Assembly: GCA_017619835.1 (NCBI GenBank) | Contig: JAFZRN010000007.1 | Coordinates: forward strand, 62,001-126,000 | Reading direction: 5' to 3' | From: Eubacterium sp. | GTDB lineage: Bacteria > Bacillota > Clostridia > Lachnospirales > Lachnospiraceae | DNA length: 64,000 bases | Shown here: positions 14,001 through 31,483 of the stretch, in pieces | Numbering within the stretch: position 1 is the first letter of the stretch | Layout of the letters: every line of letters begins with the position of its first letter | Notes under the pieces: model-generated | Databases searched by the model: none | Seen by the model: the letters and a program-made list of their open reading frames with translations, nothing else | What the model was told of the DNA's origin: nothing | Made by a program: the position numbers and the translations under genes

Positions 14001-14008
14001 TTTCACTC

Positions 14009-14344: not shown

Positions 14345-14345
14345 A

Positions 14346-14696
14346 CTAATCGAACTTCTCACAGGTAACGTCTCTCCAGGTGCCATCAAGCCCGTAAAAA
14401 TCGCGCATATCCGGCAGGAAAAGATGGATCACAACTTCACTATAATCAAGGAGAACCCAGCCTCCGATTGAGCGTCCTTCCCTGTTCTTAAGCTCGAATC
14501 CGTTATCACGCATTCCTTCCTCAACCTTGTCGATTATGGCATCCAGCTGGGACTTATTCGATGCGGTGGCGATAACGAAATTATCCGCTATTACAGACAC
14601 CTCACCAACACTCAAGTTTACGACATTGTAGCCTTTTCTGTCAAGTATGGCATCCACCGCGGTATTTATCATTTTTGTTACTTTTTCGTCAGTCAT
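14346..14696 (-). CDS. rsfS: ribosome silencing factor RsfS
   Basis: Binds L14 and blocks 30S-50S joining when nutrients are short (family knowledge). It has 116 residues; the Iojap/RsfS family pattern DNFVIATASNKSQLDAI and GGWVLLDYSEVVIHLF is plain. ATG 14696 follows GAGGG. A TTG-started longer frame is less likely. It sits directly after yqeK, the common rsfS-yqeK-nadD neighbourhood of Firmicutes. Confidence 0.95.
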   Translation of the reverse strand: MTDEKVTKMINTAVDAILDRKGYNVVNLSVGEVSVIADNFVIATASNKSQLDAIIDKVEEGMRDNGFELKNREGRSIGGWVLLDYSEVVIHLFLPDMRDFYGLDGTWRDVTCEKFD

Positions 14697-14726
14697 ATTA
14701 GCCCTCAAATCCTTATATTTTACTAT

Positions 14727-15329: not shown

Positions 15330-15345
15330 TCATTCTTCCTCATCC

Positions 15346-15397
15346 ATTTTGTGAACATTCTGTGTCCGGGGTCTGACCCCCGTCACATTTTTTTCAC
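15346..15397 (-). repeat. dispersed palindromic repeat, copy D (type I)
   Basis: Nearly identical to copy F at 40848-40899. The core is GGGGTCTGACCCC with GTGAA and TTCAC outer arms. The terminal GTGA of its minus strand supplies the TGA stop codon of nadD, exactly as copy F does for ftsY. It ends 16 bases before the yqeK ATG. Confidence 0.88.
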
Positions 15398-16026
15398 ATA
15401 ATATACAGGTTCTTTCTATTAATATACTCTTCGACTGCCGCGGGCACGAGATTGGAAATGTCTTCACCTGCCACAACTCTTCTCCGGATCTCTGATGACG
15501 ATATCGGCATCTCCTCCATATCCAACAGCCTTATATCAGCCCCCGGATGCTCATCCATAATCCTCTCGATAATCTCAAGAGACCTTTCTCTATCCGTCTC
15601 ACCCCTTACTGCCGCGAGAAATGTCACGCTGACGAGAAGTTCATCAGCATCTACCCATTTATCAACCCACTCAAGCGAATCCCCGCCGAGAATAAAGTAA
15701 ATATCCCTCTCAGAATCCTCTGCCTTAAGCTCCCGCACGGTATCAATGGTACGCGTAACACCGCCACGACTAATCTCCATATCGGAAACCGACATATAAG
15801 GATAATCCTTAATTGCAAGCTTAATCATAGCAAGTCTATCCTCATCCGGCGCAAAGACAGTATTCTCTTTATAATAGGTCGTCTTATTGGGCATGAAAAC
15901 AATATTATCCAGCCCGAACTCTTCATGCGCACAAACAGCCATAGCAATATGACCCAAGTGTATCGGGTTGAACGACCCACCAAGCAGGGTAATATTATTA
16001 ATATTTTTAGTAGTATTATTATTCAT
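15394..16026 (-). CDS. nadD: nicotinate-nucleotide adenylyltransferase
   Basis: Makes deamido-NAD from nicotinate mononucleotide and ATP. It has 210 residues, a normal length, with the nucleotidyltransferase motif GGSFNPIHLGHI near the N-terminus and ISSSEIRRRV near the C-terminus. The ATG at 16026 lies two bases after the yhbY stop and has only a weak ribosome site, so coupling is likely. Its stop codon lies inside a dispersed repeat, so the natural C-terminus may have been reset by the repeat. Confidence 0.95.
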   Translation of the reverse strand: MNNNTTKNINNITLLGGSFNPIHLGHIAMAVCAHEEFGLDNIVFMPNKTTYYKENTVFAPDEDRLAMIKLAIKDYPYMSVSDMEISRGGVTRTIDTVRELKAEDSERDIYFILGGDSLEWVDKWVDADELLVSVTFLAAVRGETDRERSLEIIERIMDEHPGADIRLLDMEEMPISSSEIRRRVVAGEDISNLVPAAVEEYINRKNLYIM

Positions 16027-16028
16027 AA

Positions 16029-16319
16029 TTATTTCGGCAGTTCTATCTTCGGATTCTCATGATTATGCTTATAGAGCACAATCTTCCTCCCGATCACCTG
16101 CACAACCTCGGACCTGGTTCTTTCAGCCAGGGTTGCAGCAAGTGTCTGCGGAACATCATAGCAGTTCTTTAATACATTTATCTTGATAAGCTCTCTTGCC
16201 TTAAGCGCCTCGGCAACAGCATCCGTGAATTCCGGAGTCAGACTGGATTTACCGAGCGACAGGATCGGATCGATCGTCTGGGCAAGCCCCTTCAAGTATG
16301 CTCTCTGTTTTGTATTCAT
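16029..16319 (-). CDS. yhbY: YhbY family RNA-binding protein
   Basis: A 96-residue CRM-domain protein thought to bind pre-50S particles (family knowledge). It begins MNTKQRAYLKGLA and includes the loop LSLGKSSLTPEF in place of the usual GKxG loop pattern, and VVQVIGRKIVLYK. ATG 16319 follows GGAGG. It sits between obgE and nadD, a normal Firmicutes order. Confidence 0.92.
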   Translation of the reverse strand: MNTKQRAYLKGLAQTIDPILSLGKSSLTPEFTDAVAEALKARELIKINVLKNCYDVPQTLAATLAERTRSEVVQVIGRKIVLYKHNHENPKIELPK

Positions 16320-16364
16320 TATATCCTCCAAAATGTGACAAACAGATCTGAACTAATTGTCACA

Positions 16365-17669
16365 TTATTCATAGTAATCAAAAGCCCAACCATAGACTCT
16401 GACTTCGTCGCCTTCCTGAATCCCGAGTGCCTTAAGCTCCTCGATGATACCATTCTTGACCATGAAGTCCTGGAAAAACTTGAAGCCCTTCTCGTCCTCG
16501 AGATTGGTATATCCCAGCATCCTCTCGATGCGCGGTCCCTCAACATGGTATACGCCCTCCTGATCGGGATCCTTCTCAACGGTGTAAGGAAGTTCAACCT
16601 CTCGCGAAGCATAATCCTCAAGCTCGATCTCGGGCGAAAATTCCATAACATCATCCGGCGCAGTAGCTATCATGTCAAATGCTTTCTCAAGCAGACCCTG
16701 TATCCCTTCTCCTGTCGCAGCCGAAATCTCGACTACCGGCTTATCGGGATATGCCTTGCGGATCTTCTCAACAACAGCCGGGCGCTCCTCTTCGGGAAGC
16801 ACATCCATTTTATTAGCTACTATTATAGTAGGCCTCTCGGCAAGCTGCGGACTGTAGCTTCTTAACTCCGCTGTAATCGCCTCGATATCCTCGATGGGAT
16901 CACGTCCCTCAACTCCGGCGGCATCCACTACATGAAGCAGGACCCTGGTCCTCTCAATATGCCTTAAGAAAGCGATTCCGAGTCCGACGCCTTCAGCCGC
17001 GCCCTCGATTATACCCGGAATATCAGCCATGACAAAGCTTCTTCCCTCTCCGAGGCTCACAACTCCAAGATTCGGCACGAGCGTCGTAAAATGATAATCC
17101 GCGATCTTCGGCCTCGCATTTGAAACCATTGAAAGCAGCGTGGATTTTCCGACACTGGGGTAGCCCACAAGTCCTACGTCCGCAATCATTTTCAGCTCCA
17201 GCACAAGGTATTTCTCGATCGCAGGCTCGCCGGGCTGCGCATATCTCGGCGCCTGCATCGTGCTGGTCGCATAATGCATGTTGCCCTTGCCGCCTCTGCC
17301 GCCCGTAAAAAGCGTGAATGGCTCTTCGCTGTCAGCCATATCGACGATGACCTTATCCGTCTCGAAGTCCTTGATAACGGTTCCGGGCGGAACCTTGATC
17401 ACGATATCCTTGCCATTTGCGCCGTGGCAGCGGCGTTTGCCGCCCTCCTCGCCGTCGCCGGCCTTATATTTTCTTACATTTTTAAAATCAGTCAGAGTAT
17501 TCAGACCTTTGTCTACAATGAAAATGACGTCGCCACCTTTACCGCCATCACCCCCATCCGGTCCCCCGTTCGGAACATACAGCTCACGACGGAAGGAAAC
17601 GTGGCCGTCGCCACCCTTTCCGGATCTGACGAAGATCTTCGCTCTGTCTGCGAAAGTACCGTTTGACAT
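16365..17669 (-). CDS. obgE: GTPase Obg
   Basis: Essential GTPase in late 50S assembly and stress response. It has 434 residues: a Gly-rich Obg domain (1-158; GKGGDGHVSFRRE), a G domain (GYPSVGKSTLLS, DIPGIIEG, NKMD, SAATGEG) and the C-terminal OCT domain of Firmicutes (about 360-430). ATG 17669 follows GAGGAAAG. It follows rpmA after a leaky-looking hairpin. Confidence 0.97.
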   Translation of the reverse strand: MSNGTFADRAKIFVRSGKGGDGHVSFRRELYVPNGGPDGGDGGKGGDVIFIVDKGLNTLTDFKNVRKYKAGDGEEGGKRRCHGANGKDIVIKVPPGTVIKDFETDKVIVDMADSEEPFTLFTGGRGGKGNMHYATSTMQAPRYAQPGEPAIEKYLVLELKMIADVGLVGYPSVGKSTLLSMVSNARPKIADYHFTTLVPNLGVVSLGEGRSFVMADIPGIIEGAAEGVGLGIAFLRHIERTRVLLHVVDAAGVEGRDPIEDIEAITAELRSYSPQLAERPTIIVANKMDVLPEEERPAVVEKIRKAYPDKPVVEISAATGEGIQGLLEKAFDMIATAPDDVMEFSPEIELEDYASREVELPYTVEKDPDQEGVYHVEGPRIERMLGYTNLEDEKGFKFFQDFMVKNGIIEELKALGIQEGDEVRVYGWAFDYYE

Positions 17670-17684
17670 ATCTTTCCTCATTAA

Positions 17685-17716
17685 AACAAAAAGGAGCCTT
17701 GTTTTCACAAAGCTCC
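17685..17716 (-). terminator. imperfect terminator between rpmA and obgE
   Basis: GGAGCCTTGT and ACAAAGCTCC pair with one mismatch around TTTC; on the minus strand TTTTTGTTTT follows. It probably lowers obgE transcription relative to the ribosomal proteins rather than stopping it. Confidence 0.6.
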
Positions 17717-17729
17717 ATTACCGTTACGA

Positions 17730-18011
17730 TTAAGCAACAGGATAAATTGATACCTGCTTCTTGTCTCTTCCAAGTCTCTCGTATCTAACAACACCATCTA
17801 TTAATGCGAACAGAGTATCATCTCCGCCACGTCCAACATTAAGTCCCGGATGGATCTTTGTTCCACGCTGTGTATAAAGTACGTTTCCGGCCTTTACATA
17901 CTGACCGTCAGCACGCTTAGCTCCAAGTCTCTTTGAAGCTGAATCTCTACCGTTCTTGGTAGAACCCATTCCCTTCTTATGAGCGAAGAGCTGTAAATTC
18001 ATCTTAAACAT
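17730..18011 (-). CDS. rpmA: 50S ribosomal protein L27 with cleavable N-terminus
   Basis: A 93-residue L27. It starts [20 protein letters not shown]. In Firmicutes the residues up to LQLF are removed by the protease Prp before L27 enters the ribosome (family knowledge), and prp is directly upstream. ATG 18011 is supported by GGGAGGT; the ATG at 18002 is too far from it. It overlaps prp by eight bases. Confidence 0.97.
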
Positions 18012-18799: not shown

Positions 18800-18833
18800 A
18801 ATAAAAATATCCCGGCCTTTTTTCAAGGCCGGG
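18800..18833 (-). terminator. terminator of the pilus operon
   Basis: CCCGGCCTT and AAGGCCGGG (18811-18833) form a 9-bp GC-rich stem followed on the minus strand by ATATTTTTATTTTT. It starts ten bases after the stop of the last pilus gene. Confidence 0.92.
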
Positions 18834-18842
18834 CGTACTTTT

Positions 18843-19571
18843 TTACTCATTCTGATTATATCTTCTCTTTCGTTCAATAACCAGAACTATTATTCCGACA
18901 AATGATATCGCAAATATATTGATCCAGACAAACAGGTAAGTCTCATCTCCGGTCTTCTTACTCTTGTCCTTACCGCCGTCATTTCCATCATCGGAAGTCT
19001 TCTTTTCAGTTTTCTTTTCGGTTTTCTTTTCTGTAGTAACCTCAGTCGGAGTCTCAGTAGTATCCTCCGTATCATCGGCCCCACCCTTGGAAACCTTATT
19101 CACAAACTCAATCTTCAGCGGCTTCTTCGCCGTATTAGCGATATTAACGGAAACCGTATACTGCAGCTCTCCGTTATCATCTGTGGTTACAAACAAATGA
19201 GCCTCAAACTGAGTCTGATCGTAATCCATCTTGTCGTCATCACCTTCGACCTGATAGATCAGGTAGTCGTAGGTTCCGGGTTCAGTAACCTGAACCTTAA
19301 ACTCCCCTTTATTGTCTTCAATAATATCTAGTTCATCTGATGTGGGAGCAGGCGCATTTTTCTGTGGTTTGATCTTGATCTTATACTTGAAGCTGTCTAC
19401 TTTCTTAACCTCAAGACAGTTGACCGTGATCGTCGCCGTGATCGGTTTATACGATCCGGCGAGAACCGAAATGCAGCTCAAGAAAATGCATAGCAAAGAA
19501 AACAGGCATAGCAAACCAAGCCTGCTCAAAGCTGAGCCTACTTTTATATTATTTCCAAATATCTTCACCAT
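18843..19571 (-). CDS. minor or basal pilin with one pilin isopeptide-type domain
   Basis: A 242-residue exported protein. It has a hydrophobic signal segment (about 17-38), one FctA/Spy0128-like domain (about 42-162) with TEPGTYDYLIYQVEG and a closing FVNKV, then an acidic/Thr-Lys linker with three TEKK repeats (about 165-200). The C-terminus is a sorting-type signal: KKTGDE (205-210), a membrane span and ERKRRY. The motif lacks the Leu-Pro of LPXTG. ATG 19571 was chosen for spacing to AAGG; a longer frame overlaps the sortase. As last gene of the operon it may be the base subunit joined to the wall, like streptococcal FctB (inference). Confidence 0.78.
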   Translation of the reverse strand: MVKIFGNNIKVGSALSRLGLLCLFSLLCIFLSCISVLAGSYKPITATITVNCLEVKKVDSFKYKIKIKPQKNAPAPTSDELDIIEDNKGEFKVQVTEPGTYDYLIYQVEGDDDKMDYDQTQFEAHLFVTTDDNGELQYTVSVNIANTAKKPLKIEFVNKVSKGGADDTEDTTETPTEVTTEKKTEKKTEKKTSDDGNDGGKDKSKKTGDETYLFVWINIFAISFVGIIVLVIERKRRYNQNE

Positions 19572-19597
19572 CATATCCTTTTCAAATCCTTTAGTGT

Positions 19598-20314
19598 TTA
19601 GTCCTCGGGCAGTATGTAACACATAACTAACAGCCTGTTGGACGAAACAGGTTCGGTGCACGTTGAAAGTGCAAGTATATGACAACTTTTTTGGATGGAG
19701 GTATTCATAGTCACCGCTTCCTTCGATATAACCTTGGAAATGTTTTCAAAGGTATCGGGATCCAGAACTTGATTGTCAAATACATCCACCTTTAAACACG
19801 CAAAAACCCCAAGCCTATAGGATTTTCTCCCATCCCGGCCCACAATCAGAGTTCCTGTCGAGTGCTCTTTTAAATAATTCTTGTCAAGAAAATCATCAAG
19901 AGCGCCGAACATCTTTCCATACTCCATGTGATGACCGTAGAGTATGGAATAGTCATCGGTAAAATCAGGACTATTCCTGCTATCGAGAAAGATACTACCT
20001 GAAAGTGAATATTCCCCATATGGATTAATATTCAGAAATTTGTAGTTATCCTCTCCCTGCATAATAGGATAGTCTATATTTGTATCATCTATGGTTATCC
20101 ATGCGACCATATCCTCGGTTATCGGGGCGTCGTCAGGCACCCCTTCTCCAACCGTAGGTTTAAATCTCAGATAACTGTCATCAGTCGCATTGTTGTAAAC
20201 GTACCAGGTATCATATAACCCGTATACCACTATGAGAAGCACCACAACAAAAGCACATAGCATGAGCTTCTCATATAGTATATTCAGGTTTATCCAGAAA
20301 CGTTTCGCATCCAT
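19598..20314 (-). CDS. class B sortase (pilin-polymerising)
   Basis: A 238-residue membrane-anchored transpeptidase with one N-terminal membrane segment (about 17-38). The class B pattern is clear: MVAWITIDDTNIDYPIMQ, SGSIFLDSRN, YGHHM (His128/129), LSTC (Cys219) and SNR (Arg227). The catalytic triad is intact. It lies between two pilin genes and probably links pilin subunits, as the class B SrtC does in Streptococcus pyogenes (family knowledge). The ribosome site is weak and the start lies nine bases after the major pilin stop, so coupling is likely. Confidence 0.92.
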   Translation of the reverse strand: MDAKRFWINLNILYEKLMLCAFVVVLLIVVYGLYDTWYVYNNATDDSYLRFKPTVGEGVPDDAPITEDMVAWITIDDTNIDYPIMQGEDNYKFLNINPYGEYSLSGSIFLDSRNSPDFTDDYSILYGHHMEYGKMFGALDDFLDKNYLKEHSTGTLIVGRDGRKSYRLGVFACLKVDVFDNQVLDPDTFENISKVISKEAVTMNTSIQKSCHILALSTCTEPVSSNRLLVMCYILPED

Positions 20315-20323
20315 AGATTGATA

Positions 20324-21598
20324 TTACTCTTCTTCATATCTCTTTCTTGAACGAACTGCGAAGAATACAATTCCAAATACTACAATCAGTGCAACTACGA
20401 TAAGTCCGGTAGCTGAAAGGATGATTCCTGTAGGGATAACACCGCTACGAGTATTTGTGAAACCGGCTACTGCCATCTTGTCATTACCTGCAACGGTTCC
20501 GATCACACCACTGTTAGTATCACCAGACTTAACTGCTGACTGATAATCTTCTGCATTTTCAGTAACTTCATATTCAATACTTGGAGCAAGTCCACGGATA
20601 ACAACTGACTGACCATGCTGAAGATAGAATGTAACACCTGAATTAAGTTCTGAACCTGAAACTGTCTGAGGATTTGTCTTTCCAGCATTATCAGAAATGG
20701 TTGCAGCATTTGTTCCGGATGTAGCATCAGCATTACCATCATTTGTATTAGCATCATTATCATCATCAAGTGATACTATGAAAGAATCACTTGCATTTGC
20801 ATTTGTAGTTTTAACTGTAATTGCAAAATACTTATCACGTGAAGCCTGATTTCCAGTCACTTCTTTTTCAACTTTGAGATCTTTAGAATTATACTCATTT
20901 GTAAAACCATCAGTCTTATCTGCAAGTGCTTCTCCTGCTGCCTGAACATCATTTGAACCCATCGTGCTTGATATAGCAACATCATCATCATCTGTATGAA
21001 GCACATATGCTGATACTACCAGAGTTCCGGTTCCATCATCAGTTACATAAACATCAAGAACACGATCCTGGTCATTGTCATATATAACACCAGAAGCAGA
21101 ACCTTGTGTTTCAGCTATAATGTAACGATAAATACCGGGTTCAGGGAATGTAATTCCTGCAAAACTAACTGTAGCTTCTTTTGTAGCAAACACTTCTCCT
21201 GATTCTAATTCAACTCCATTAGCTGGTGTAGCTCCAGCTGCTCTATCAGAAGCAGCTCGTTGAATATCTATTAGGTCAGTTGTAACATCTGTTGTAGAAT
21301 CACCAGGGCCGAAAGTAACATCTGTAATAACAGGTGTACCAACACCGGGAAGAACTTCCATTACGTCATTACTTGAAGTACTAATAGAACGGCCTGTTCC
21401 TGGAGTTGCTGTAAAACTAAACGTAACAGTCGGAACTTTTTCACCTGCTTCTACAATAAGGTACTTATTAAATGCACATGAAGTACCAGCAACCGGTGTA
21501 TATGTTGTTCCGGCACTTACGATTCCGGCCATCATCATGACAGCCATAGCTGTTGCAGTAATAACTGCTAACAATTTTTTCTTTAAACTACCTCTCAT
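20324..21598 (-). CDS. major pilin, FctA-like, with IPTG sorting motif
   Basis: A 424-residue exported pilin. Signal peptide 1-29. Domain 1 (about 40-236) has the FctA/Spy0128 pattern: ITFPEPGIYRYIIAE and closing FTNEY. Domain 2 (about 240-384) starts LKVEKEVTGN and closes with GFTNTRSG. Each domain offers a Lys-Glu-Asn set for an internal isopeptide bond (K45, E163, N234 in the first; a Lys near 243-246, E346 or E348 and N382 in the second), assigned by pattern only. The sorting signal is VIPTG (387-391), a hydrophobic span and RSRKRYEEE. ATG 21598 follows GGAGG. An Asp/Asn/Thr-rich loop (278-300) is low complexity. Confidence 0.88.
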   Translation of the reverse strand: MRGSLKKKLLAVITATAMAVMMMAGIVSAGTTYTPVAGTSCAFNKYLIVEAGEKVPTVTFSFTATPGTGRSISTSSNDVMEVLPGVGTPVITDVTFGPGDSTTDVTTDLIDIQRAASDRAAGATPANGVELESGEVFATKEATVSFAGITFPEPGIYRYIIAETQGSASGVIYDNDQDRVLDVYVTDDGTGTLVVSAYVLHTDDDDVAISSTMGSNDVQAAGEALADKTDGFTNEYNSKDLKVEKEVTGNQASRDKYFAITVKTTNANASDSFIVSLDDDNDANTNDGNADATSGTNAATISDNAGKTNPQTVSGSELNSGVTFYLQHGQSVVIRGLAPSIEYEVTENAEDYQSAVKSGDTNSGVIGTVAGNDKMAVAGFTNTRSGVIPTGIILSATGLIVVALIVVFGIVFFAVRSRKRYEEE

Positions 21599-21664
21599 TT
21601 TGAATACCTCCATTTGTATTTCTTGTTTTTTGGTTATTTTTTACATAGTTAACATTTTTATCTC

Positions 21665-21684
21665 AAGAAACCTTTCGGTTACTT
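21665..21684 (-). promoter_or_regulatory. GNRA-capped hairpin ahead of the major pilin gene
   Basis: On the minus strand AAGTAACC, loop GAAA and GGTTTCTT form a short hairpin in the 94-base gap before the major pilin gene, the largest gap in the operon. It could be a processing or stabilising site that raises pilin yield. Weak evidence. Confidence 0.35.
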
Positions 21685-21692
21685 AGGAACAT

Positions 21693-22256
21693 TTATATTC
21701 CCCTTCTTCTTATGATGAGTATTACCTTTCCGATAATATCTTCCTGGGGAACGCCTCCAAAAGTTCTGCTGTCATCCAAATCATTTCTATAATCATTTAA
21801 TAGGAATACAGAACCTTGGGGAACTGTGTAGGGAAGTGGGATCTTCACTCCCTCTTCTGTCGTTGGATAGACCGTATCTTCATATACACCATATCCATTG
21901 ACCATTAATGACTCTTCCATAAAGCTTACTGAGTCTCCGGCTTCAGCCATAATCCTGCCAAACTTGACCTTTCCGCCTTGTTTATACGAATAGACATCAT
22001 TATTAACAATTTTACCACGTCTATAAGATATACACAAGTCGCCGTCTTTAATCATGGGGTAACCGCTGTTGCTATGATTTATATTTATTGATACCACAAA
22101 TGTCAGCAGCGCCCATATTGCAAGAGCAGTGACTCCAACCTTTATAAAGAATTCGATGGCATATGATCCTGCCGACCTTTTCTTTTTAGGCTTTTTCGGA
22201 GCTCCTTTGTTTTCCGGCGGAGATTTACCACCGGTTGATTGTTTTTCCTGTTCCAT
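21693..22256 (-). CDS. signal peptidase I-like protein of the pilus operon (SipA-like)
   Basis: A 187-residue membrane protein of the signal peptidase I (S26) family, with a Pro/Lys-rich cytoplasmic N-terminus and one membrane span (about 34-56). Box B reads HSNSGYPMIKDGD, placing Ser64 at the nucleophile position. The box D segment reads FGRIMAEAGD, with Gly100 where the catalytic Lys precedes the Arg in active enzymes. Box E (DDSRTFGGVP, IIGKV) is intact. Streptococcus pyogenes SipA, in the same operon position, also has a Gly at this site and acts in pilus assembly (family knowledge). So this is probably an assembly factor rather than a general signal peptidase. Confidence 0.85.
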   Translation of the reverse strand: MEQEKQSTGGKSPPENKGAPKKPKKKRSAGSYAIEFFIKVGVTALAIWALLTFVVSININHSNSGYPMIKDGDLCISYRRGKIVNNDVYSYKQGGKVKFGRIMAEAGDSVSFMEESLMVNGYGVYEDTVYPTTEEGVKIPLPYTVPQGSVFLLNDYRNDLDDSRTFGGVPQEDIIGKVILIIRRRGI

Positions 22257-22268
22257 GATCCCCCCTTC

Positions 22269-25200
22269 TTAATCTTTTCTCTTCAAATTCCTAAGATGGT
22301 TAAGTCTGAGTTTGATCAGAATCATCAGTATTGCAAGTATCAGACAACCACTTAAGATAAGGAGAGTCTTGAAATCAGTAAATACGCCTGTTGGAATCAA
22401 GGTATTTAATTCATTGGTATAGTCAATCTTCATATTCTTATCAATATCGTCGATTGTTACCGTTACACCCGTTCCATTAACAGGAGGACAATTAGGATCA
22501 TCCGGAACCGGATATACACTATAGGATGCAGTGTAATTAAGCGGAGCTTCTGTTATAGTAACATCGCTGCCATCCGGAACCAATATCGTTACAGTATCAT
22601 CATGAGCTAAGAAGAATGTATTATGATTCAAATCAGGATCAGTACTAACAACAAGATTATCATCTTGAGGTTCATTATTCTTAGACCATGAGTACCCTGC
22701 AGGATCAGGATTATCAATACTGAAAGTAAACAGGAAGTCTTTTACTTTATTGCCCATATTTCCGGTTACTTTCTTTGTGATGGTTACGGCTTTGAAACCA
22801 TCCAGCTCATCCACAACTTTTACCCTATATTCATGAGGAATTTTAGTGGAATCGGATATATCTTCTACACCACCGGGAACATTATGTAGTATAAGCTCTC
22901 CCAATTCGGTTATCTCAAAGTATATATCTCCTTCTACTTTCTTATATCCCGTAGGAGCCTCAGTTTCTACAAGGAAGTATCGTCCGGGTTTTAAAGTATT
23001 ATCAATATTCGGTATTATTCCGGTACTTGGTGAAACCAGATCGGTACAACCGGGCATCGGAACTGAATCTTTAACTACATCGCCGAATGCATTTACTTTA
23101 CCTTCATATAGTTTAAAATGTGCTCCTGCAAGTGCACTCGGTACACTATTAGTCTTATAGAATTCAAGCGTATAAGGCTTGTTGTAGACATTTACAAAAG
23201 CGGTCAGACTTTGATTTTCAAGCTCATCGCACTCTTTCCAATTATCTTCACTGCTACCTACAAAGGATATATTATTATCATTATCAATTTTGAAAATGAC
23301 CGGCTCGGTAAGACCTATATATCCTTGAAGAGAGCTTTTCTGTGTAAGCCTGTAATTCGTATTCTTATCATAGTAAAGAATCGTTAGTTTACCATTTTCA
23401 TCGGAAGTTAATGATTCAACCTCAACATAATCTCCCGATACCGAATCATACTTTTCAAGAACGAAAGGAACTCCTTCGAGAGGAACCTTATCATTCTCAT
23501 TTCTGGAGGTCATATCATAAACTGATATGATAACGCCCTCGTCCCTGGAATTGAGAATAGTATCTCTACGGATATTTCCACCAGCGGGCTCATTTACACC
23601 TGTCATCTCTGGAGTGCCCTGAGTATATGTAACGCCATACTCAAAGGTTTCTGAAACACCGGTAGATTTAGGGGTTGCATTAACTTCAATGGTGTCTTCA
23701 ATAGGTGAAATCGCCGTATAGCTTTGTATATTTTTATCAACGTTATTGTCATATACCGGATCTGTAAACTCTACTTCACGAACTTTATAATCTGTAAATG
23801 ATTTCCCAGCTGCAAGTTCATCAAAGTAATATCTTGCCGTCAGACTGGAATCTGTGATCTTTCTTAATGTACCTTCCACAAAAACTCCATCCAGAAATAC
23901 TGCTGTGTATATTGGATCGTGTGAAGAAACATATTCCTTATCACTCCAAATCTTTTCAGATTCGATTTCCCAACCACGACGGTTTTCTACATTTACTTTA
24001 GGAGAAATAGGATTGCCATTTTCTTTATCCTTAACCCATCCGGAAATAGAATCATCAGAATTGCTTTTAAGATTAAATGTGCCTTCATCATAGGAATATT
24101 TATCAAATCTGTATCCGAGAGGAATCTCCCATGTTCTCTCCTCAACATCAAACATCATTCCAACAGGCAGATCACGAACTTCTACAGTATATCCGGCAGG
24201 TATCTTGGAAATGGAACCATTCATAGAAGTTTCAAATGTCACCTGATGCAATTCCTCTGGTAATAGATTCTGATAATCAGATTTTCCTATAGAGACAAAA
24301 CACTGATTTTCATGATCCCATCTGCAATAGTTGCCGTTTAAATCTTTAACATTATACTGATACATATTGGCAAGACTAAGACTATAATCATCCGAACCGT
24401 TAGACAGTTTCAAACGATAATTGAATGTAGTCTCATCATCAGGATAATTGATAGGTTGTTCATTCTCATCTATAAGCTTTTTGGTAATGATGAGAGTTCT
24501 GGTTTTGTTTGCTCCGACTTCATTTTCAAATGTAATAGTCGGACGATCCTCTGTTGAAGAAGGAGTAGACTCATGATCATACAAAGGACTTGATAAAACC
24601 TGCGTTCCGGTAGACGTGACATCGTTTATCTTTACGCTATCATAAACCTCGGAGTTAACAGCACACTCAACTATCTTATAATTTCTGACCTCTACCGGGA
24701 ATCTGATTTCGGCACTTTGCCCCGGATTTAGAAGATAAACATTTGTATATACTTTTTCTTCAACTTGAGACGGACTATAAAATGTAGGTTTAAAATCTAC
24801 ATGATGAGAAGAAATCTTATAATTTACATACTCTACATACATATTATTTATAGTTTCATTATGAAGTTCATACCATGTGTCATCACTGGTATCTGTTGTC
24901 TGATAGAATATCTTAAAAGGATACTGAACCACATTATAATCCAGGTCATCCTTTCCATCCCCAGTCAATTTCTTTGTAAGCAGTACATTTGAAGGCGCAA
25001 CATAGCTTAAATTCAGTCTCATATGAAGGTTAGAAGCACCGGCTCCTCTTTCCATATAGAAGATCTTCAGTGTATGAGAAGTATAATCTTTAAACACATA
25101 ATTACCGTTTTTCTCTACAAAAACACTATCTATATATGCATCTATATCAGATTGTGTTGCATCCGGATTATTCTCACGATAATTATCTTCAAAAATAGCT

Positions 25201-28190
25201 TTAAGAGTTGTAGTATGTCCGTTTTCATTAACAACTCCTGTAGAGAAATTAACTGAACCGGGAACTGCAGAATGTATACCACCAAGATCTATAACAAGGT
25301 CATCATCAACATAGAGCCAGAAATCATCATCACCGTAAAATTCAAAAATAATGTCATGTCCCCAGGCATCTTTACCATCAGGTGTAGCTATAAAGCTGGC
25401 AGACATTTCCATTGCGTTATAATAATTCGGTTTGCCATTGTCACATTGAAGAGCATGAAGCTTTTCATATTTTCTCGGATCAGATTCGGGAAGTTCATTT
25501 TGATCTGCATCATACAAATTTCTGGAATTGACCGAAGTATACTTTCCGGCTTCTATCTTGTCATATGGCATAAACTGACCATGTTTTAAAGAAGGTTTAT
25601 TTTGTATACTAGTACCATCAGTTCCTACATCTGTAGTTCCAAGTTCTTTATATACAGTAAAGTTATATTCTTCATTTTCATTTGTCGAATCATTTAGCTG
25701 GGCAAAGTTCTGGGTGCTGTCAAACTCAAAATAACCACTATTCTCATATGTATTTTCAAGAAACAAGTGGTTTACTGTCGATGCTCCTTGATATAAAGTG
25801 CCTAAAGATTTACCATAAACATAATTACTGCCCCCATAAGGATTTTGAGTATCATTTGCAGCTGTAGGATAACCATCTGCCCCAAGTTTATTTGATAAAA
25901 GACCTTGTTTGAGAGTCGTGCCTACTCCTCCACTGTTATCACCAAAGAATCTACTCATGGTTTCTCTTTTATCAATATCTTTCATTTTTATAGTAATTCC
26001 ATACTGATTATTATCAATCGTAGGAACTTCTGTAAGATCATCATCAAGTGGATCAACCACAGCAAAATAGAAGGATTCTGCATCTTTTCTGGGGCACGAT
26101 ATAAGTTGCCCTGTAGAAGGATCAGCTTTAAGTCCGGCATAGGAATAATATGGGTCATCCCATGCATAGATTTCACTGTAATAATCCCCATACTTTCTTC
26201 CGGGCATATTAATACCAATGGTATCATCAGATAATACCTGTCCATCAATCTGAGGAGCAAGATATTTTCCCGAATACTCATTCTGGAGTTCATAATAGTT
26301 ATTCTCTGTTCCATCAGGATATGTATAAACAGTATATGTCCAAAGAAGAGTATTAATCTGTTTACCAAGCCACATGATATCAGAGCCTCTTTCGTAGCAC
26401 CGAACAAGAGACCCATCGTGATCAACAGCATAAAAATCATATCCGGACCCATTCCATACACGGGTATATACGATAACACTTTGCTGGTCAACCGCTTCGG
26501 AAACACTGATCTTTTCGGCCGAATAAGATAACTGATCATCATCTTCAACAACAATTTTATCTACAAAATTAAACCATACTTTAGACGTAGAAGTAACATT
26601 TGTAATAACTGTAAACTGAGTTCCGTCATATGCGAGAGTATAGTTTCCTGTGCTAAGCATTATGGTATGAGCATGCTCATCAACACCGGGAATAACAGTT
26701 ATCTCATTATCTTCATTCTTATCAGGTTCATCGGTCAGAGATACTCCATTACTGGATATTTTAAGATATTTTTTTTCTCCATTTACAGTAGCATAAATAT
26801 AATATCTGTCCTCAGCCACTGATTCAAATGTCCACTCAGTAACATCATCGTTCTCAGTAACGTATATTTCTTTACCGGCCCCGCTATTAGGACGTATAGT
26901 GGTTTCAATCATGGTTTGATAGTTTATCCCAGGATCAGCCATCAACGCAGTACCTGAAGAACTGCCATCAGAATATGCCATTAAACCATGAGTTTTGCCA
27001 GATAGACTGAAAGGATCATTAACATCAGCATATTTTTTATACCATAAAGTAATTACATTATCTTTCGAATTATTGTTGTAAGCACAAAAGCTTTTACCAT
27101 TTGGCATTCCCTGCTGATTGATATAATAATTCCCGCTTTTAAAAGCCAAGCCAGTATAAGTAACTCCATTTTCAGTAAATGTATAATCAGAAACCTGAAA
27201 TCCTGACGCATTAGATTGAGAATCAACAAATAAAAGTGAATTATTGTTTTGCTTGATATACTGTTTAACCCCATTATTATCATAGCAGTACAAATAATAG
27301 GTATGCGACATACCCGAAACAGCCTCAAGATAATATATCGCAGCGTCACCGGTTGGTAACGAATCAGCAGGCGAAGTTTTTAAAATACCTGTTCTGGAAT
27401 TACTAACTCTGAAAATCTCATTTTTAAGATAAAACCCATTATCTGAATTACCTAATACAAATCCTTCAGATAGCCTATTTTCCAAATCCTGCAAATCAAC
27501 AACTTCTTCCCAGGTATAAGCCTCAAAGTTCACACCCGGCTCTTCCACAATCTCATACACACTAAAACCTGTGGCGTCGAAGCTTACGCTTCCGTCTTCC
27601 ACAGTGATGTCGAGGATTTCTTCTTTTGTGCCATCATCTCTGATGTGCCAAACATGGAGAATTGAATCAGAACTGATCTGGGGATCATTTATCTGAACAG
27701 ATATAGGGCGGTTTTCTTCCGGCTGGTACTCGGAATTGCCGTCCATAATAGATATATCGTAAGCAGCGAGTACTGTGCACTCTTCTGCCTCATCAGCACT
27801 CTTGGCATCCGTAGGAGTTGCATCCGAAGTAATGGGCTCAGCGTCGTCAGTTACATCAACAACCTTTGCGGTTGCATCAACGGGCATAAGTCCTTCGAGT
27901 GTTACGGATTTTTCTTTGTCTTTCTTGTCTGGGAATACTTCAAGACTCTGATGGCTAAGCTCGGTCTCATCTGACGAGCTCTCATCTGACTGAACAACTG
28001 CTGCTTCTGTGTCTTTCTCAGTAGTAGTTTCGGTAACCTCTTCACTTATCTCAGTAGCTTCTTCAATAGCATCGGTAAGTGTTGCTTTAGAGGCTTCTTC
28101 AGAATATGCTCTGTAGTTCGGGTATACTGCGGACACGACAAAAAGAAGCGCTGTTATCACGCAAATGATTTTCCGCTTAGTCATTTTCAT
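22269..28190 (-). CDS. giant pilus adhesin with fibro-slime and Cna-B-type domains
   Basis: A 1973-residue surface protein, first gene of the pilus operon. It has a signal peptide (about 1-32) and a Thr/Glu/Ser-rich N-terminal stretch. A fibro-slime-like domain occupies about 760-1070 (FEFYGDDDFWLYVDDDLVID, LKIFYMERGAGASNL). Stretches starting KKLTG, IITKKL and TITKKVTGN precede or surround two SpaA/Cna-B-like domains (about 1570-1760; EGVPFVLEKYD, LAGAHFKLYEG, VETEAPTGY). The end is LIPTG (about 1933), a membrane span and a basic tail. ATG 28190 has a GAGAGGGGG site. It corresponds in position to streptococcal Cpa but is much larger. Likely the tip or adhesive subunit; the ligand is unknown. 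The gene looks more AT-rich than its neighbours. Confidence 0.85.
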   Translation of the reverse strand: MKMTKRKIICVITALLFVVSAVYPNYRAYSEEASKATLTDAIEEATEISEEVTETTTEKDTEAAVVQSDESSSDETELSHQSLEVFPDKKDKEKSVTLEGLMPVDATAKVVDVTDDAEPITSDATPTDAKSADEAEECTVLAAYDISIMDGNSEYQPEENRPISVQINDPQISSDSILHVWHIRDDGTKEEILDITVEDGSVSFDATGFSVYEIVEEPGVNFEAYTWEEVVDLQDLENRLSEGFVLGNSDNGFYLKNEIFRVSNSRTGILKTSPADSLPTGDAAIYYLEAVSGMSHTYYLYCYDNNGVKQYIKQNNNSLLFVDSQSNASGFQVSDYTFTENGVTYTGLAFKSGNYYINQQGMPNGKSFCAYNNNSKDNVITLWYKKYADVNDPFSLSGKTHGLMAYSDGSSSGTALMADPGINYQTMIETTIRPNSGAGKEIYVTENDDVTEWTFESVAEDRYYIYATVNGEKKYLKISSNGVSLTDEPDKNEDNEITVIPGVDEHAHTIMLSTGNYTLAYDGTQFTVITNVTSTSKVWFNFVDKIVVEDDDQLSYSAEKISVSEAVDQQSVIVYTRVWNGSGYDFYAVDHDGSLVRCYERGSDIMWLGKQINTLLWTYTVYTYPDGTENNYYELQNEYSGKYLAPQIDGQVLSDDTIGINMPGRKYGDYYSEIYAWDDPYYSYAGLKADPSTGQLISCPRKDAESFYFAVVDPLDDDLTEVPTIDNNQYGITIKMKDIDKRETMSRFFGDNSGGVGTTLKQGLLSNKLGADGYPTAANDTQNPYGGSNYVYGKSLGTLYQGASTVNHLFLENTYENSGYFEFDSTQNFAQLNDSTNENEEYNFTVYKELGTTDVGTDGTSIQNKPSLKHGQFMPYDKIEAGKYTSVNSRNLYDADQNELPESDPRKYEKLHALQCDNGKPNYYNAMEMSASFIATPDGKDAWGHDIIFEFYGDDDFWLYVDDDLVIDLGGIHSAVPGSVNFSTGVVNENGHTTTLKAIFEDNYRENNPDATQSDIDAYIDSVFVEKNGNYVFKDYTSHTLKIFYMERGAGASNLHMRLNLSYVAPSNVLLTKKLTGDGKDDLDYNVVQYPFKIFYQTTDTSDDTWYELHNETINNMYVEYVNYKISSHHVDFKPTFYSPSQVEEKVYTNVYLLNPGQSAEIRFPVEVRNYKIVECAVNSEVYDSVKINDVTSTGTQVLSSPLYDHESTPSSTEDRPTITFENEVGANKTRTLIITKKLIDENEQPINYPDDETTFNYRLKLSNGSDDYSLSLANMYQYNVKDLNGNYCRWDHENQCFVSIGKSDYQNLLPEELHQVTFETSMNGSISKIPAGYTVEVRDLPVGMMFDVEERTWEIPLGYRFDKYSYDEGTFNLKSNSDDSISGWVKDKENGNPISPKVNVENRRGWEIESEKIWSDKEYVSSHDPIYTAVFLDGVFVEGTLRKITDSSLTARYYFDELAAGKSFTDYKVREVEFTDPVYDNNVDKNIQSYTAISPIEDTIEVNATPKSTGVSETFEYGVTYTQGTPEMTGVNEPAGGNIRRDTILNSRDEGVIISVYDMTSRNENDKVPLEGVPFVLEKYDSVSGDYVEVESLTSDENGKLTILYYDKNTNYRLTQKSSLQGYIGLTEPVIFKIDNDNNISFVGSSEDNWKECDELENQSLTAFVNVYNKPYTLEFYKTNSVPSALAGAHFKLYEGKVNAFGDVVKDSVPMPGCTDLVSPSTGIIPNIDNTLKPGRYFLVETEAPTGYKKVEGDIYFEITELGELILHNVPGGVEDISDSTKIPHEYRVKVVDELDGFKAVTITKKVTGNMGNKVKDFLFTFSIDNPDPAGYSWSKNNEPQDDNLVVSTDPDLNHNTFFLAHDDTVTILVPDGSDVTITEAPLNYTASYSVYPVPDDPNCPPVNGTGVTVTIDDIDKNMKIDYTNELNTLIPTGVFTDFKTLLILSGCLILAILMILIKLRLNHLRNLKRKD

Positions 28191-28249
28191 TGACGTATAC
28201 CCCCTCTCTCCAGAGTATTGTCTTAAAAATGTATCCAATAAGACAGTTT

Positions 28250-28279
28250 ATTTTACCACCAAATAACTAGTTATGTCAA
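28250..28279 (-). promoter_or_regulatory. promoter of the pilus operon with palindromic spacer
   Basis: Minus strand TTGACA (28274-28279) and TAAAAT (28250-28255) are 18 bases apart. The spacer holds a perfect 12-bp palindrome, ATAACTAGTTAT (28263-28274), that touches the -35 box, a typical place for a repressor or MerR-type activator site. Confidence 0.65.
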
Positions 28280-28402: not shown

Positions 28403-31390
28403 TTATTTGACGGTGACATTTACGGTCTTACATATACCGTTCTGCGTGTAGCAGTGAATTTTCGCCTTACCGGCCTTCAGGGCCTTCACTTTTCCACTCT
28501 TCGAAACAGTGGCAACGCTGGGATCGGTGCTCTCATAGCGGACCTTCGCGATGTGCGTGCTGACCTTCTTACCCTTCGGCTTCTTGACCGTAGCTTTGAT
28601 CTTGGACGTCTTGCCCTTCTTGATACTGAGCTTGGTCTTCTTCACCTTAAGCTTCGTCGGGTTGCCCTTCTTGCCGCCACCGGTGGCAACGTGCACGGAC
28701 TTGGAAGTGGTGAGAACCTTGTCGCCCACCGAGGTCGTCTTATAAGCAACGACCATGTACTTGTAGTAAGTATTCTTCTTAAGTTTCTTTATGGTAAATG
28801 TCTTCTTGCCGGAACCTTTTACAGTGGTTATATACTTCATCTTGTTGCCACATTTCGAACCGTAAATGATATAGCCGTCGGCCTGCTTTATGGATTTCCA
28901 TGTAAGCTTGATAGCATTATTCTTCTTCGGAGTTCCCTTAAGCATGAGGAACTTCATTGTTGATCCTTCAACATCACCCTTATCGGTATTTGCATTCTCG
29001 ATCACTGCCTGCTTCTCTTCTACCAAGATATTTTCGGCTTCGGGGAAGATGGACGTCAGGTCATCAGCCGGATTCTCTGTCGGAGCAGCTGATGGTGAAG
29101 TCGTCGGCTCCGCTGATGCAGTCGGTTCCGGTGATGATGATGGATCTGCCGTCGGGGTTGGCTCCGGAGTCGGTGTCGTGGCCAAGTCATTTCCATACTT
29201 AATCTTAAGGTTGCAGGAGTCGAAGATGTAATATAACAGTTCATCACTAGATAAAACCAATTCATAGAGGCCTAAGTCCTTGGGGAATATGCCAAGGCTA
29301 AGAACTGTTGCTTCTTTTACCGTGTCACACTCAACTCCCGAAAGCGTCATGACAGTTTTGCCATCTTCATTCTTAGACATATGTATCTTCATCACCGAAT
29401 CTTCTTCTGGTTCGATAGAAATATGAGTATAAATGCTGGTCGGTCCGAAGAATTGATCTGCAAGAAATACGTCCGCCTCAGCCAGCTTCTCGGAATCAGA
29501 TGGAACCGGCGTCAGATAATAATCATAATCAAAGATGACATCTTTATTTTCAAATATCGTCGTGCCGGCAGCCTTGTCAAACTCGCCATCGTACCACATT
29601 TCTTTGATCATAGTCGAATAATAGAAATAGAAAAGGAAGTCGTTGGTGCTGTCGTCAGCAAAATATTTGCCTTTATAATATGACGGACCACCCGCCTCAA
29701 TGAGTTCAGAGCCTGTTATCGTTACGGTTTTTCCATTTGAAAGATCATAATTCAGAACTTTGTTGACTCTTATCGGAGGCTTTGCATATACGGTTACATC
29801 ATCATAGATTCTTACCATGAATTCATCTTTATGCGTAGTGTCATTATATAGAATATCGATTTGGTAAAGATCCTTTACATAGGTTTTGATCTCGCCTTCC
29901 GGCTCATTTGAAAACATGTAGGCGGCAAACTTCTCATTTTCATCGGTTATAAACGTCTCATAGACATCCTTTGAGCCACCATCGGAATCCTTTTTCGGAA
30001 TCGCGAGTTCTGCGAGGGTTTTGCTTCCGTCGTAGGACTTGATGGTAAGTATTGCGGTATCGCCCTTGATCTTCCAGTTAACTGTCTTGGGCTCGATTGT
30101 TCCGTCTTCCCATACGTAGCCTTCATTAAGGGTAAATGTCGCCGAATACCTGCCGGCTTCCGTGGCTTTGACTGTACCAGTGTAGGTGTAAAAGCTCTCA
30201 TCTGCTATATAGTCTACGCCGGTCTGCTCTGTTGAGTCTGCCTTAAGGCCGGTGATTGCAGTAGGGATAGGAACGCCATCAGTTTTGTAGAATAAGAGGT
30301 TGTCGTAGTGGGACGTACCTGTTGCGTCATATATTCCTATATAGTTCAGAGTCTGGGTTAAGTTATATCTCAGATCATCGGTTTCTGAACTATTCTGATC
30401 CCATTTTTTACCATCGACATTTACAGAGTATTTGTTGTTATATTTATCGATCACCAGTTTGAAATGTTTTTTTACATTTTGAGGCATATAGCCTATCTCA
30501 ACATATTTATCGAGATTTTTAGCGCCCAGGTAACTGATCTCACCGTTAATGTAGCTTGCAACCGCAGCAACACCATACCCTTGACCTTTACCATTATGGC
30601 CCTCATTCATTCTCTGGTACTGTCCGGCATATATTGCAGATCTGCCAAAACCATGTGTCTCGCCAACATCTGTTCTTGTAACATCAGCCTCATAGATATA
30701 GAATCCGTCTTCGACGCCATTTCCAAGACTAATGCATGCATCAACACCTGCCCCACCCGTGCCTGTAACAGTCAGGTACTTCGTTTCGGATTCAGAAGCT
30801 ACGACCTTCTGATTCGTTTGGCCGTTTCCTACTCCGACGCCATAAAGATATAAAAATGGTTTTCCCTGAAAATCTGCAGGGGGATTATTGCTGCTATGCG
30901 CTAAATATGTTCCACCATCATATGTTTCAAAATCCTCAGTGTAGTAGACATCATAAGGAAGCTCTGCTTCGAAAAACTGAGATGTTTCTGATATCTTTCC
31001 ATCATCGTCAACGAATGCAGCCTGGATACATACAACCTTCGGTCCTTTTGACATACCCTGTGCAGCTCCGAGAGTTATAAGGTTGTTCTTTCCTGCTTCT
31101 GCATCAATACTATTTCCGGCTGAAAATATATTTATGGCAGCCGGAGCATCGCTCTTTGATCTGACATAATAAAATATCTTCACATCTTCGTCAGCACTTG
31201 TTGCTGTATCAGGCAGATAGAAATAAAGCTTCGCGTTCTCGGCATCTGTTCTCAGGATGCTTCCAACAGCGCTGCCTTTAAAGTATTCGTCATCATCCGC
31301 TTTTACAGTGCCCCACGGCAGGAATGCCGCAATCACCACAGCCATAATGACGCAGGCGATGAAGTTTCTGATTGCTCTTCTCTTACTCAT
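28403..31390 (-). CDS. secreted multi-domain surface protein (LamG-like, FN3, Big2)
   Basis: A 995-residue exported protein with a signal peptide (1-31). About 150-370 looks like a LamG/concanavalin-type beta-sandwich (YYTEDFETYDGGTYL, NYIGIYDATGTSHYDNLLFY), by pattern only. A Pro/Thr/Ser linker (about 735-775) is followed by a fibronectin type III domain (about 815-905; IKLTWKSIKQADGYIIYG) and a Lys-rich bacterial Ig-like Big2 domain (about 910-995; YESTDPSVATVSKSGKVKALKAGKAKI). There is no sorting signal or dockerin, so the basic C-terminus may hold it to the wall by charge (inference). ATG 31390 follows GGGGGAG. A repeat copy lies just upstream. Its position beside a cellulase suggests carbohydrate or surface binding. 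Confidence 0.75.
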   Translation of the reverse strand: MSKRRAIRNFIACVIMAVVIAAFLPWGTVKADDDEYFKGSAVGSILRTDAENAKLYFYLPDTATSADEDVKIFYYVRSKSDAPAAINIFSAGNSIDAEAGKNNLITLGAAQGMSKGPKVVCIQAAFVDDDGKISETSQFFEAELPYDVYYTEDFETYDGGTYLAHSSNNPPADFQGKPFLYLYGVGVGNGQTNQKVVASESETKYLTVTGTGGAGVDACISLGNGVEDGFYIYEADVTRTDVGETHGFGRSAIYAGQYQRMNEGHNGKGQGYGVAAVASYINGEISYLGAKNLDKYVEIGYMPQNVKKHFKLVIDKYNNKYSVNVDGKKWDQNSSETDDLRYNLTQTLNYIGIYDATGTSHYDNLLFYKTDGVPIPTAITGLKADSTEQTGVDYIADESFYTYTGTVKATEAGRYSATFTLNEGYVWEDGTIEPKTVNWKIKGDTAILTIKSYDGSKTLAELAIPKKDSDGGSKDVYETFITDENEKFAAYMFSNEPEGEIKTYVKDLYQIDILYNDTTHKDEFMVRIYDDVTVYAKPPIRVNKVLNYDLSNGKTVTITGSELIEAGGPSYYKGKYFADDSTNDFLFYFYYSTMIKEMWYDGEFDKAAGTTIFENKDVIFDYDYYLTPVPSDSEKLAEADVFLADQFFGPTSIYTHISIEPEEDSVMKIHMSKNEDGKTVMTLSGVECDTVKEATVLSLGIFPKDLGLYELVLSSDELLYYIFDSCNLKIKYGNDLATTPTPEPTPTADPSSSPEPTASAEPTTSPSAAPTENPADDLTSIFPEAENILVEEKQAVIENANTDKGDVEGSTMKFLMLKGTPKKNNAIKLTWKSIKQADGYIIYGSKCGNKMKYITTVKGSGKKTFTIKKLKKNTYYKYMVVAYKTTSVGDKVLTTSKSVHVATGGGKKGNPTKLKVKKTKLSIKKGKTSKIKATVKKPKGKKVSTHIAKVRYESTDPSVATVSKSGKVKALKAGKAKIHCYTQNGICKTVNVTVK

Positions 31391-31406
31391 ATGCTCCCCC
31401 TTATTT

Positions 31407-31479
31407 CGTTATAGGTTTTGCCTAATTGAATTGTGTCCATTCTGTGAAAGGGGCCTGACCCCATTACAAAAGTGTTACG
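31407..31479 (-). repeat. dispersed repeat, copy E1 (chimeric, 73 bp)
   Basis: It matches copy E2 at 34407-34479 in 70 of 73 positions, exactly 3000 bp apart. The left half resembles type I (CATTCTGTG) and the right half is type II (CCCCATTACAAAAGTGTTAC), joined at GGGGCCTGACCCC. An extra 22-base tail on the left reads TTATAGGTTTTGCCTAATT in part. It lies four bases past the cellulase stop codon and 16 bases before the next ATG. Confidence 0.9.
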
Positions 31480-31483
31480 TTTT

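What the first reader, a model, noticed from the sequence alone, without database searches (positions are those of the whole stretch)
18843..28279. Pilus operon with the gene order of the streptococcal FCT region in a Lachnospiraceae-like genome
On the minus strand the order is large multi-domain adhesin, signal-peptidase-like protein, FctA-type pilin, class B sortase, second pilin. Streptococcus pyogenes M1 has cpa, sipA, fctA, srtC (class B), fctB in the same order. The operon has one promoter at its head and one strong terminator at its end. The adhesin is far larger than Cpa and has a fibro-slime domain. This points to a covalent, sortase-built fibre with isopeptide-stabilised subunits in an anaerobic gut or rumen bacterium.
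Basis: partly seen in the sequence, partly recalled or inferred. Interest (0 to 1): 0.85.

Follow-up and report, generated by a model that had tools for sequence, protein, structure and literature searches.

The report
FCT-like covalent pilus operon
A gut bacterium, whose nearest relatives come from the rumen, carries a five-gene set for a covalently linked surface hair (pilus) built like that of Streptococcus pyogenes but with a giant, different tip protein, a probable but untested way of holding on to a surface, possibly plant fibre.

Summary
Observation confirmed, with corrected gene starts. Five genes lie head to tail on the minus strand, 28190..18843. Sequence searches match four to S. 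pyogenes pilus proteins: sortase to Spy0129, signal-peptidase-like protein to SipA (catalytic Lys is Gly in both), first pilin to T-antigens and Spy0128, second pilin to FctB (weakly alone, strongly by profile). The fifth, a 1973-residue adhesin with a fibro-slime domain, shows no Cpa thioester domain. Of 59 loci fetched with the sortase, all titled MAG or uncultured, 46 hold contiguous sip-fctA-srtB; the putative linking Lys and FctA isopeptide residues are conserved. The "same order as FCT" argument is weaker than it looks: in 6 of 6 informative same-genus loci the adhesin is last; the window operon lies at another chromosomal place with the adhesin first (a large gene is also first in three more distant loci). 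The genome's only other detected sortase is also class B, so anchoring probably differs from the SrtA-dependent S. pyogenes case. A class-B-sortase pilus with streptococcal synteny is already shown in Clostridium perfringens. Verdict: new variant of a known kind. Polymerisation, anchoring and the adhesin's target are inferred.

The parts
28250..28279 (-). Promoter-like site at the operon head (TTGACA, 18 nt, TG-TAAAAT)
   Evidence: 11 of 12; 59 nt before the adhesin ATG; the scan overall is not clearly above chance
22269..28190 (-). Adhesin, 1973 aa: conserved core about residues 551-1085 with fibro-slime domain (944-989), two SpaA stretches, DUF7601, LIPTG sorting signal; predicted tip subunit
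   Evidence: start codon
21693..22256 (-). SipA-like signal-peptidase homologue, 187 aa, Ser64 kept, catalytic Lys replaced by Gly100; predicted non-catalytic pilus assembly factor
20324..21598 (-). FctA/Spy0128-like backbone pilin, putative isopeptide residues K50/E168/N239 and K250/E352/N387, putative linking Lys233, sorting signal VIPTG (numbering from ATG 21613; the RBS favours ATG 21598)
19598..20314 (-). Class B sortase, 238 aa, predicted pilin polymerase
18843..19574 (-). FctB-like pilin, predicted base, 242 aa from ATG 19571; no isopeptide Lys (Cys52), putative linking Lys150, sorting signal KKTGD
18811..18833 (-). Terminator-like hairpin at the operon end (also listed on the + strand)

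Best explanation
This is a sortase-assembled, covalently linked pilus operon of the SipA/class-B-sortase type best known from the S. pyogenes FCT loci. Proposed working (family-based inference unless marked shown): the subunits are exported by Sec. The class B sortase cuts the xPTG signal of the adhesin (LIPTG) and of FctA (VIPTG) between Thr and Gly and joins the Thr to Lys233 of the next FctA, so the adhesin ends at the tip and FctA forms the shaft. The SipA-like protein is a signal-peptidase homologue that lacks the catalytic Lys (shown by sequence), so it acts as a chaperone or scaffold, not as a peptidase. FctA carries the residues for two Lys-Asn isopeptide bonds (shown by alignment). 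FctB lacks the isopeptide Lys (shown by alignment), receives the last FctA on Lys150 and ends growth; its different KTGD signal is read by the genome's other class B sortase, which anchors the fibre to the wall. The tip adhesin binds an unknown target, plausibly a polysaccharide.
For: Best solved-structure matches: sortase to Spy0129 (3psq, 1.8e-35; next 4y4q 5.2e-30); Sip to SipA (4n31, 2.7e-21), with Gly at the catalytic Lys in both; FctA to T18.1 (7e-19) and by profile Spy0128 (3b2m, 2.6e-25); second pilin to FctB (8k6t 0.0038, 3klq 0.0039; by profile 7.2e-21 and 2.1e-20, where a T-antigen ranks first at 5.1e-23). Relatives: 46 of 59 loci keep contiguous sip-fctA-srtB and 34 of 59 sip-fctA-srtB-fctB. 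Sip Lys column: 0 Lys in 51 relatives (47 Gly, 2 Ala, 1 Ser, 1 gap). Among the 30 best loci of the family search, the window's own included, 0 of 17 with a pilus gene in the short locus keep Lys, against 8 of 13 without. FctA: Lys233 in 54 of 54 rows, all seven key residues in 46 of 54. Sorting signals split: Pro before TG in 52 of 54 FctA rows and 16 of 17 full-length adhesins; Pro is not among the seven commonest residues there in FctB. Two sortases detected in the genome; both match the class B model best.
Against: No experiment exists for this operon that I found. The 59 loci were selected by similarity to this sortase and all come from MAG or uncultured records. The linking lysines are assigned by alignment; for Spy0128 the printed alignment leaves Lys161 one column from Lys233. 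Placing Spy0129 with the wall-anchoring sortases is not rejected (p-AU 0.486). Anchoring by the second sortase is by elimination in a genome 93% complete, and that sortase is below the TIGR03064 cut-off (142.5 against 153.75). In 23 of 59 loci my rule found no large adhesin in the cluster; some are cut by contig ends, and some hold large frames the rule missed or mislabelled, such as L054 and L059.
Confidence: 0.88

Rival explanations
1. The class B sortase only anchors these proteins singly to the wall, as SrtB does in haem uptake, and no fibre is built.
For: The enzyme meets the general class B model TIGR03064, which is not pilus-specific; C. difficile has a single sortase, SrtB (title and abstract start in the listing).
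Against: Falls away from SrtB and Lmo2181 with 97/97 support; the operon has a backbone pilin with an invariant putative acceptor Lys and a SipA homologue, whose deletion abolishes polymerisation in S. pyogenes (PMC4049620, passages); no haem-uptake domain in the Pfam scans of the operon or of three upstream genes; the genome's second sortase groups with the wall-anchoring ones.
Confidence: 0.06
2. The SipA-like protein is an active signal peptidase that processes the pilins, using Ser64 with another base.
For: Ser is kept at the nucleophile position here and in 31 of 51 relatives; TIGR02227 signal peptidase I is matched well above its cut-off; a S. suis SipA homologue is said to have an apparently intact dyad (PMC4049620, passages).
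Against: The Lys is lost in all 50 relatives readable at that column, as in S. pyogenes SipA, which shows no peptidase activity; the Ser column varies; two further signal-peptidase-like matches exist in the genome.
Confidence: 0.06
3. The operon is a silent or decaying copy that no longer makes a pilus.
For: It lies at a different chromosomal place and in a different gene order from its same-genus relatives.
Against: All five frames are open and full length, ribosome-binding-site-like sequences precede the genes I examined, and the key residues are intact.
Confidence: 0.05

Closest known systems
Streptococcus pyogenes FCT-2/FCT-3 pilus locus (cpa, sipA, fctA, srtC, fctB)
   Same: Homologous sip, fctA, class B sortase and fctB in the same order; Lys-to-Gly in SipA; PTG-type signals on shaft and tip pilins and another signal on the base pilin; in the window also a large adhesin gene first
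   Different: Giant fibro-slime adhesin instead of the thioester adhesin Cpa; base signal KTGD instead of LPSTG/LPLAG and no other sortase than class B types detected; different neighbouring genes
Clostridium perfringens VR-10B (NE) pilus: CnaA, FimA, FimB, signal peptidase, class B sortase (PMC8088525, passages read)
   Same: Three pilins, a signal-peptidase gene and a class B sortase in one operon with reported synteny to streptococcal pilus loci, in a clostridial anaerobe; fibre shown by ladder and electron microscopy
   Different: Tip is a collagen-binding CnaA; that locus's sequences were not compared here
Fibro-slime proteins of Fibrobacter succinogenes (PMC4668043, passages read)
   Same: Share the domain name (TIGR02148 was found here; those proteins were not scanned); implicated in adhesion to cellulose in the rumen
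   Different: No sortase signal or pilus operon is described in the passages read; a Gram-negative bacterium

Membership tests
SipA-dependent class-B-sortase pilus locus (FCT-2/3 type) | Backbone pilin of the Spy0128/FctA family with isopeptide residues and xPTG-type signal | tested here: met
SipA-dependent class-B-sortase pilus locus (FCT-2/3 type) | SipA/LepA homologue without the Ser-Lys dyad | tested here: met
   Lys replaced by Gly, Ser kept; S. pyogenes SipA has Asp and Gly (PMC4049620, passages)
SipA-dependent class-B-sortase pilus locus (FCT-2/3 type) | Pilus-specific class B sortase related to Spy0129 | tested here: met
   Best PDB match 3psq; same side of a 97/97 branch. Spy0129's own place is not firmly fixed (p-AU 0.486)
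SipA-dependent class-B-sortase pilus locus (FCT-2/3 type) | FctB-type base pilin | tested here: met
   Profile matches 8k6t 7.2e-21 and 3klq 2.1e-20; aligned putative linking Lys, isopeptide Lys absent in both. The single sequence matches only at 0.0038
SipA-dependent class-B-sortase pilus locus (FCT-2/3 type) | Covalent polymer made by the sortase | not testable with these tools
   Needs immunoblot or microscopy
Streptococcal FCT region as a genomic locus | Neighbouring fibronectin-binding protein gene and RofA/Nra regulators (recalled) | tested here: not met
   Adjacent genes are, by my reading of the ORFs without a family scan, rplU, rpmA and obgE on one side, and by Pfam a Big_2/fn3-like secreted protein and a GH9 enzyme on the other
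Cpa (thioester tip adhesin) | Thioester domain with conserved Cys and Gln (recalled) | tested here: not met
   No thioester-domain match in Pfam at E up to 1 in either half; in the N-terminal half the best conserved Cys is in 15 of 19 rows. Cys1176 (17 of 19) and Cys1289 (18 of 19) in the other half are unexplained. Structure not predicted
Spy0128 fold for both pilins by structure prediction | Predicted fold matches | not tested
   Structure prediction switched off; sequence profiles used instead
Fibro-slime domain proteins (TIGR02148) | Score above the curated cut-off | tested here: met
   51.9 bits against 45; also in 2 of 3 other adhesins scanned, L037 and L044 but not the unrelated one of L106

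The most novel reading that the evidence does not exclude
The operon builds a covalent plant-fibre attachment organelle: a sortase pilus whose giant tip protein uses a fibro-slime/PA14-like head to hold cellulose or another plant glycan, common in rumen Clostridia and made and anchored by class B sortases alone. The streptococcal FCT pilus would then be one peripheral branch of a mainly clostridial module.
Probability: 0.3. Interest if true: 0.72.

Novelty: new variant of a known kind. Interest (0 to 1): 0.45.

Why it matters
Attachment to plant fibre or host surface is central to life in the rumen. The listed results of my paper searches (open-access library, long lists shown only in part) held no paper whose title or abstract start describes sortase pili of this type in Lachnospiraceae or Ruminococcus. 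A module found in dozens of gut and rumen genomes, with an intact set of assembly parts and a conserved tip protein, gives a direct test of what these bacteria hold on to. Clostridial SipA homologues that often keep Ser but lose Lys also offer natural variants for the open question of what SipA does.

Tried and rejected
Structure prediction was asked for FctB and the adhesin core and was not available, so no fold search was made. A thioester (Cpa-like) reading of the adhesin was considered because of Cys598; it is in 15 of 19 rows and no family model supports it. A thioester-like reading of FctB from Cys52 and Gln107 was considered and dropped: Cys in 36 of 55 rows, Gln in 29 of 55, and the aligned S. 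pyogenes FctB residue is Asn. Linkage of the operon to the neighbouring GH9 gene as support for plant binding was tested and rejected: GH9-like genes were found in 2 of the 59 fetched loci, within their held flanks. An alignment-free count of sorting motifs (second part) gave noisy motifs, with Pro before TG in only 13 of 57 FctA, because it stopped at earlier TG sites; I used the aligned columns instead. A plasmid search with the sortase gave 16 records, none covering 80% of the query. The PDB search with the adhesin core profile gave nothing meaningful (best E 0.23). Rows dropped: 3 of 57 FctA rows outside 300-620 aa before the 54-row counts; 8 of 26 locus adhesins of 1200 aa or less before the 19-row alignment; one search used 20 of the 59 locus sortases plus L106 and L107. 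One search used the 30 loci fetched from a longer list of matches.

Full report
WHAT IS THERE. Five ORFs lie head to tail on the minus strand. With starts chosen by ribosome-binding sites they are: adhesin 28190..22269, SipA-like 22256..21693, FctA-like 21598 (or 21613)..20324, class B sortase 20314..19598, FctB-like 19574/19571..18843. A promoter-like site (28279-28250) precedes and a terminator-like hairpin (18833-18811) follows. The promoter scan as a whole is not clearly above shuffles (49 against 41.2, sd 7.1), so that site is supported by its score and place only.

IDENTITY OF THE PARTS. Pfam and NCBIfam give FctA domains in both pilins, DUF7601 in the first pilin and the adhesin, SpaA and a fibro-slime domain in the adhesin, signal peptidase S26 and class B sortase. 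Among solved structures the sortase is nearest to Spy0129 (3psq, 1.8e-35), then 4y4q (5.2e-30), Lmo2181 (1.1e-26) and S. aureus SrtB (3.3e-22); the peptidase-like protein to SipA (2.7e-21 and 2.1e-20, against 2.4e-5 for the next, a signal peptidase); the first pilin to T-antigens and by profile to T-antigens and Spy0128 (2.6e-25); the second pilin to FctB (0.0038 and 0.0039 alone; 7.2e-21 and 2.1e-20 by profile, where a T-antigen ranks first at 5.1e-23).

RELATIVES. One scan of genome contigs with the sortase gave 59 loci, all titled MAG or uncultured, labelled Lachnospiraceae, Eubacterium, Ruminococcus, Oscillospiraceae, or more broadly Clostridia or Bacillota; several titles name rumen or omasum. 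Gene maps: contiguous sip-fctA-srtB in 46 of 59, sip-fctA-srtB-fctB in 34 of 59, fctB directly before sip in 12 of 59, a large adhesin directly after srtB or fctB in 32 of 59, a large frame directly before sip in 1 of 59 (L086, 956 aa), none found in the cluster in 23 of 59. Of those 23 some are cut by contig ends and some hold large frames that my rule missed or labelled otherwise (L054, L059). L049 and L061 have four and three tandem fctA genes. With the FctB profile, 24 of 200 sampled genomes of the window's family match at E 1e-17 or better (my count from the table; 83 of 200 at 1e-6, many of these short stretches), against 4 of 398 across the phylum; the window's own genome is counted in both, and some matches lie in large multi-domain proteins.

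RESIDUES. Sip: the Lys column is Gly in 47, Ala in 2, Ser in 1, gap in 1 of 51 relatives; the Ser column varies (Ser in 31 of 51). Control: of the 30 best family-search loci (one is the window's own), 17 have another pilus gene within the short locus and 0 of these keep Lys (11 Gly, 3 Arg, 2 Ser, 1 Asp); of the 13 without, 8 keep Lys and 5 do not. FctA (54 rows with the window): Lys233 54 of 54; the full set K50, E168, K233, N239, K250, E352, N387 in 46 of 54. FctB (55 rows): no Lys at the isopeptide position in any row, Lys150 in 52 of 55. S. pyogenes FctB has Asn there, and its Gln matches Gln107 here; [quoted passage not shown] Sorting signals: P 52, T 53, G 53 of 54 FctA rows and PTG in 16 of 17 full-length adhesins (L076 has ATG); FctB has T 51 and G 52 of 55, Asp following in 34, and Pro is not among the seven commonest residues before TG. 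This split fits two sortases reading two signals.

SORTASE TREE. A quick tree of 75 rows and a careful tree of 28 rows both put the window enzyme, the other operon enzymes, Spy0129 and 4y4q on one side, and S. aureus SrtB, Lmo2181 and the genome's second sortase on the other (98 SH-aLRT with two more rows there; 97/97). Against this: long branches are present; holding Spy0129 with the wall-anchoring group is not rejected (p-AU 0.486); holding the window enzyme with them is close to rejection (p-AU 0.058). The groups tested were named after the first tree.

ANCHORING. Two Pfam sortases were found in the genome (93% complete): this one and a 450-residue protein whose best NCBIfam match is the class B model, at 142.5 bits, below the 153.75 cut-off. 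In S. pyogenes FctB is anchored by SrtA (PMC7900414, passages). Here the second class B type sortase is the only candidate seen.

WHERE IT SITS. GC in 1-kb steps is 35-42% over 19000-27999 and 43-51% over 10000-17999 and 29000-39999. In same-genus genomes the rplU block (gene names by my reading) exists without the operon beside it: in G603 a GH9 gene lies directly before rplU, in G600 one gene lies between. DNA similarity to these runs through rplU up to window 18769 and resumes inside GH9. Their pilus operons lie elsewhere, for example in G597 at 1.51 Mb with rplU at 3.73 Mb; in G600 none was mapped. All 6 informative of 7 mapped same-genus loci have the adhesin last (L102, L123, L124, L125, L126, L128; L127 is cut). 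So among those the window's adhesin-first order is its own. A large gene is also first in the more distant L086, L106 and L107; only that of L106 was scanned for domains (DUF7601, DUF5979), and its FctB match is weak (7e-4). The shared core order sip-fctA-srtB-fctB is the stronger link to FCT.

TIP. The adhesin core (about residues 551-1085) is well conserved in 19 rows, with the fibro-slime block DDDFWLYVDxELVIDLGGxH the peak; Pfam PA14 matches the same place weakly (0.0047, below cut-off). Fibro-slime proteins of F. succinogenes are implicated in cellulose adhesion (PMC4668043, passages). This makes plant polysaccharide a reasonable first guess; the GH9 neighbour adds no support because it is not conserved beside the operon.

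KNOWN OR NEW. [quoted passage not shown] perfringens (PMC8088525, passages). The kind is therefore known. In the listed results of the searches made I saw no description of it in rumen Lachnospiraceae or Ruminococcus, or with a fibro-slime tip; the library holds open-access papers only, several lists were shown only in part, and most listed papers were seen as title and abstract start.

Noticed in passing
G000:C9, L105:10178-17824 (-): A 2549-residue surface protein with DUF7601, SpaA and DUF5979 domains and an IIPTG-type sorting signal, with no pilin gene recognised in the 19 kb fetched; could be an alternative substrate of the pilus sortase.
   Followed up: partly
L104:5060-6409 (-), G000:C12:191065-191580: Second class B type sortase, 450 aa with a long N-terminal extension, next to what reads as a ribosomal L28 gene; possibly the housekeeping sortase of the genus.
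   Followed up: partly
window 28403-31390 and 31484-33298 (-): A 995-residue secreted protein (Big_2, fn3-like) and a GH9 glycoside hydrolase just upstream of the operon; a GH9 gene lies next to or near rplU in two same-genus genomes.
   Followed up: yes
window 22269-28190, residues 1176 and 1289 of the adhesin: Two Cys conserved in 17 and 18 of 19 adhesin rows, with no explanation yet; a disulphide is one possibility.
   Followed up: no
L049, L061: Pilus clusters with four and three tandem FctA-type pilin genes, adhesin first and fctB-sip-srtB last.
   Followed up: no
G193:C5, G130:C30, G185:C1: Very large open frames (about 5600 to 9800 codons) with stretches matching the FctB profile, i.e. 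giant proteins with pilin-like stretches.
   Followed up: no
L054, about 9682-12100: FctA-like frames appear as a short piece before the sortase and two pieces after it, perhaps a rearranged or disrupted copy; described only.
   Followed up: no
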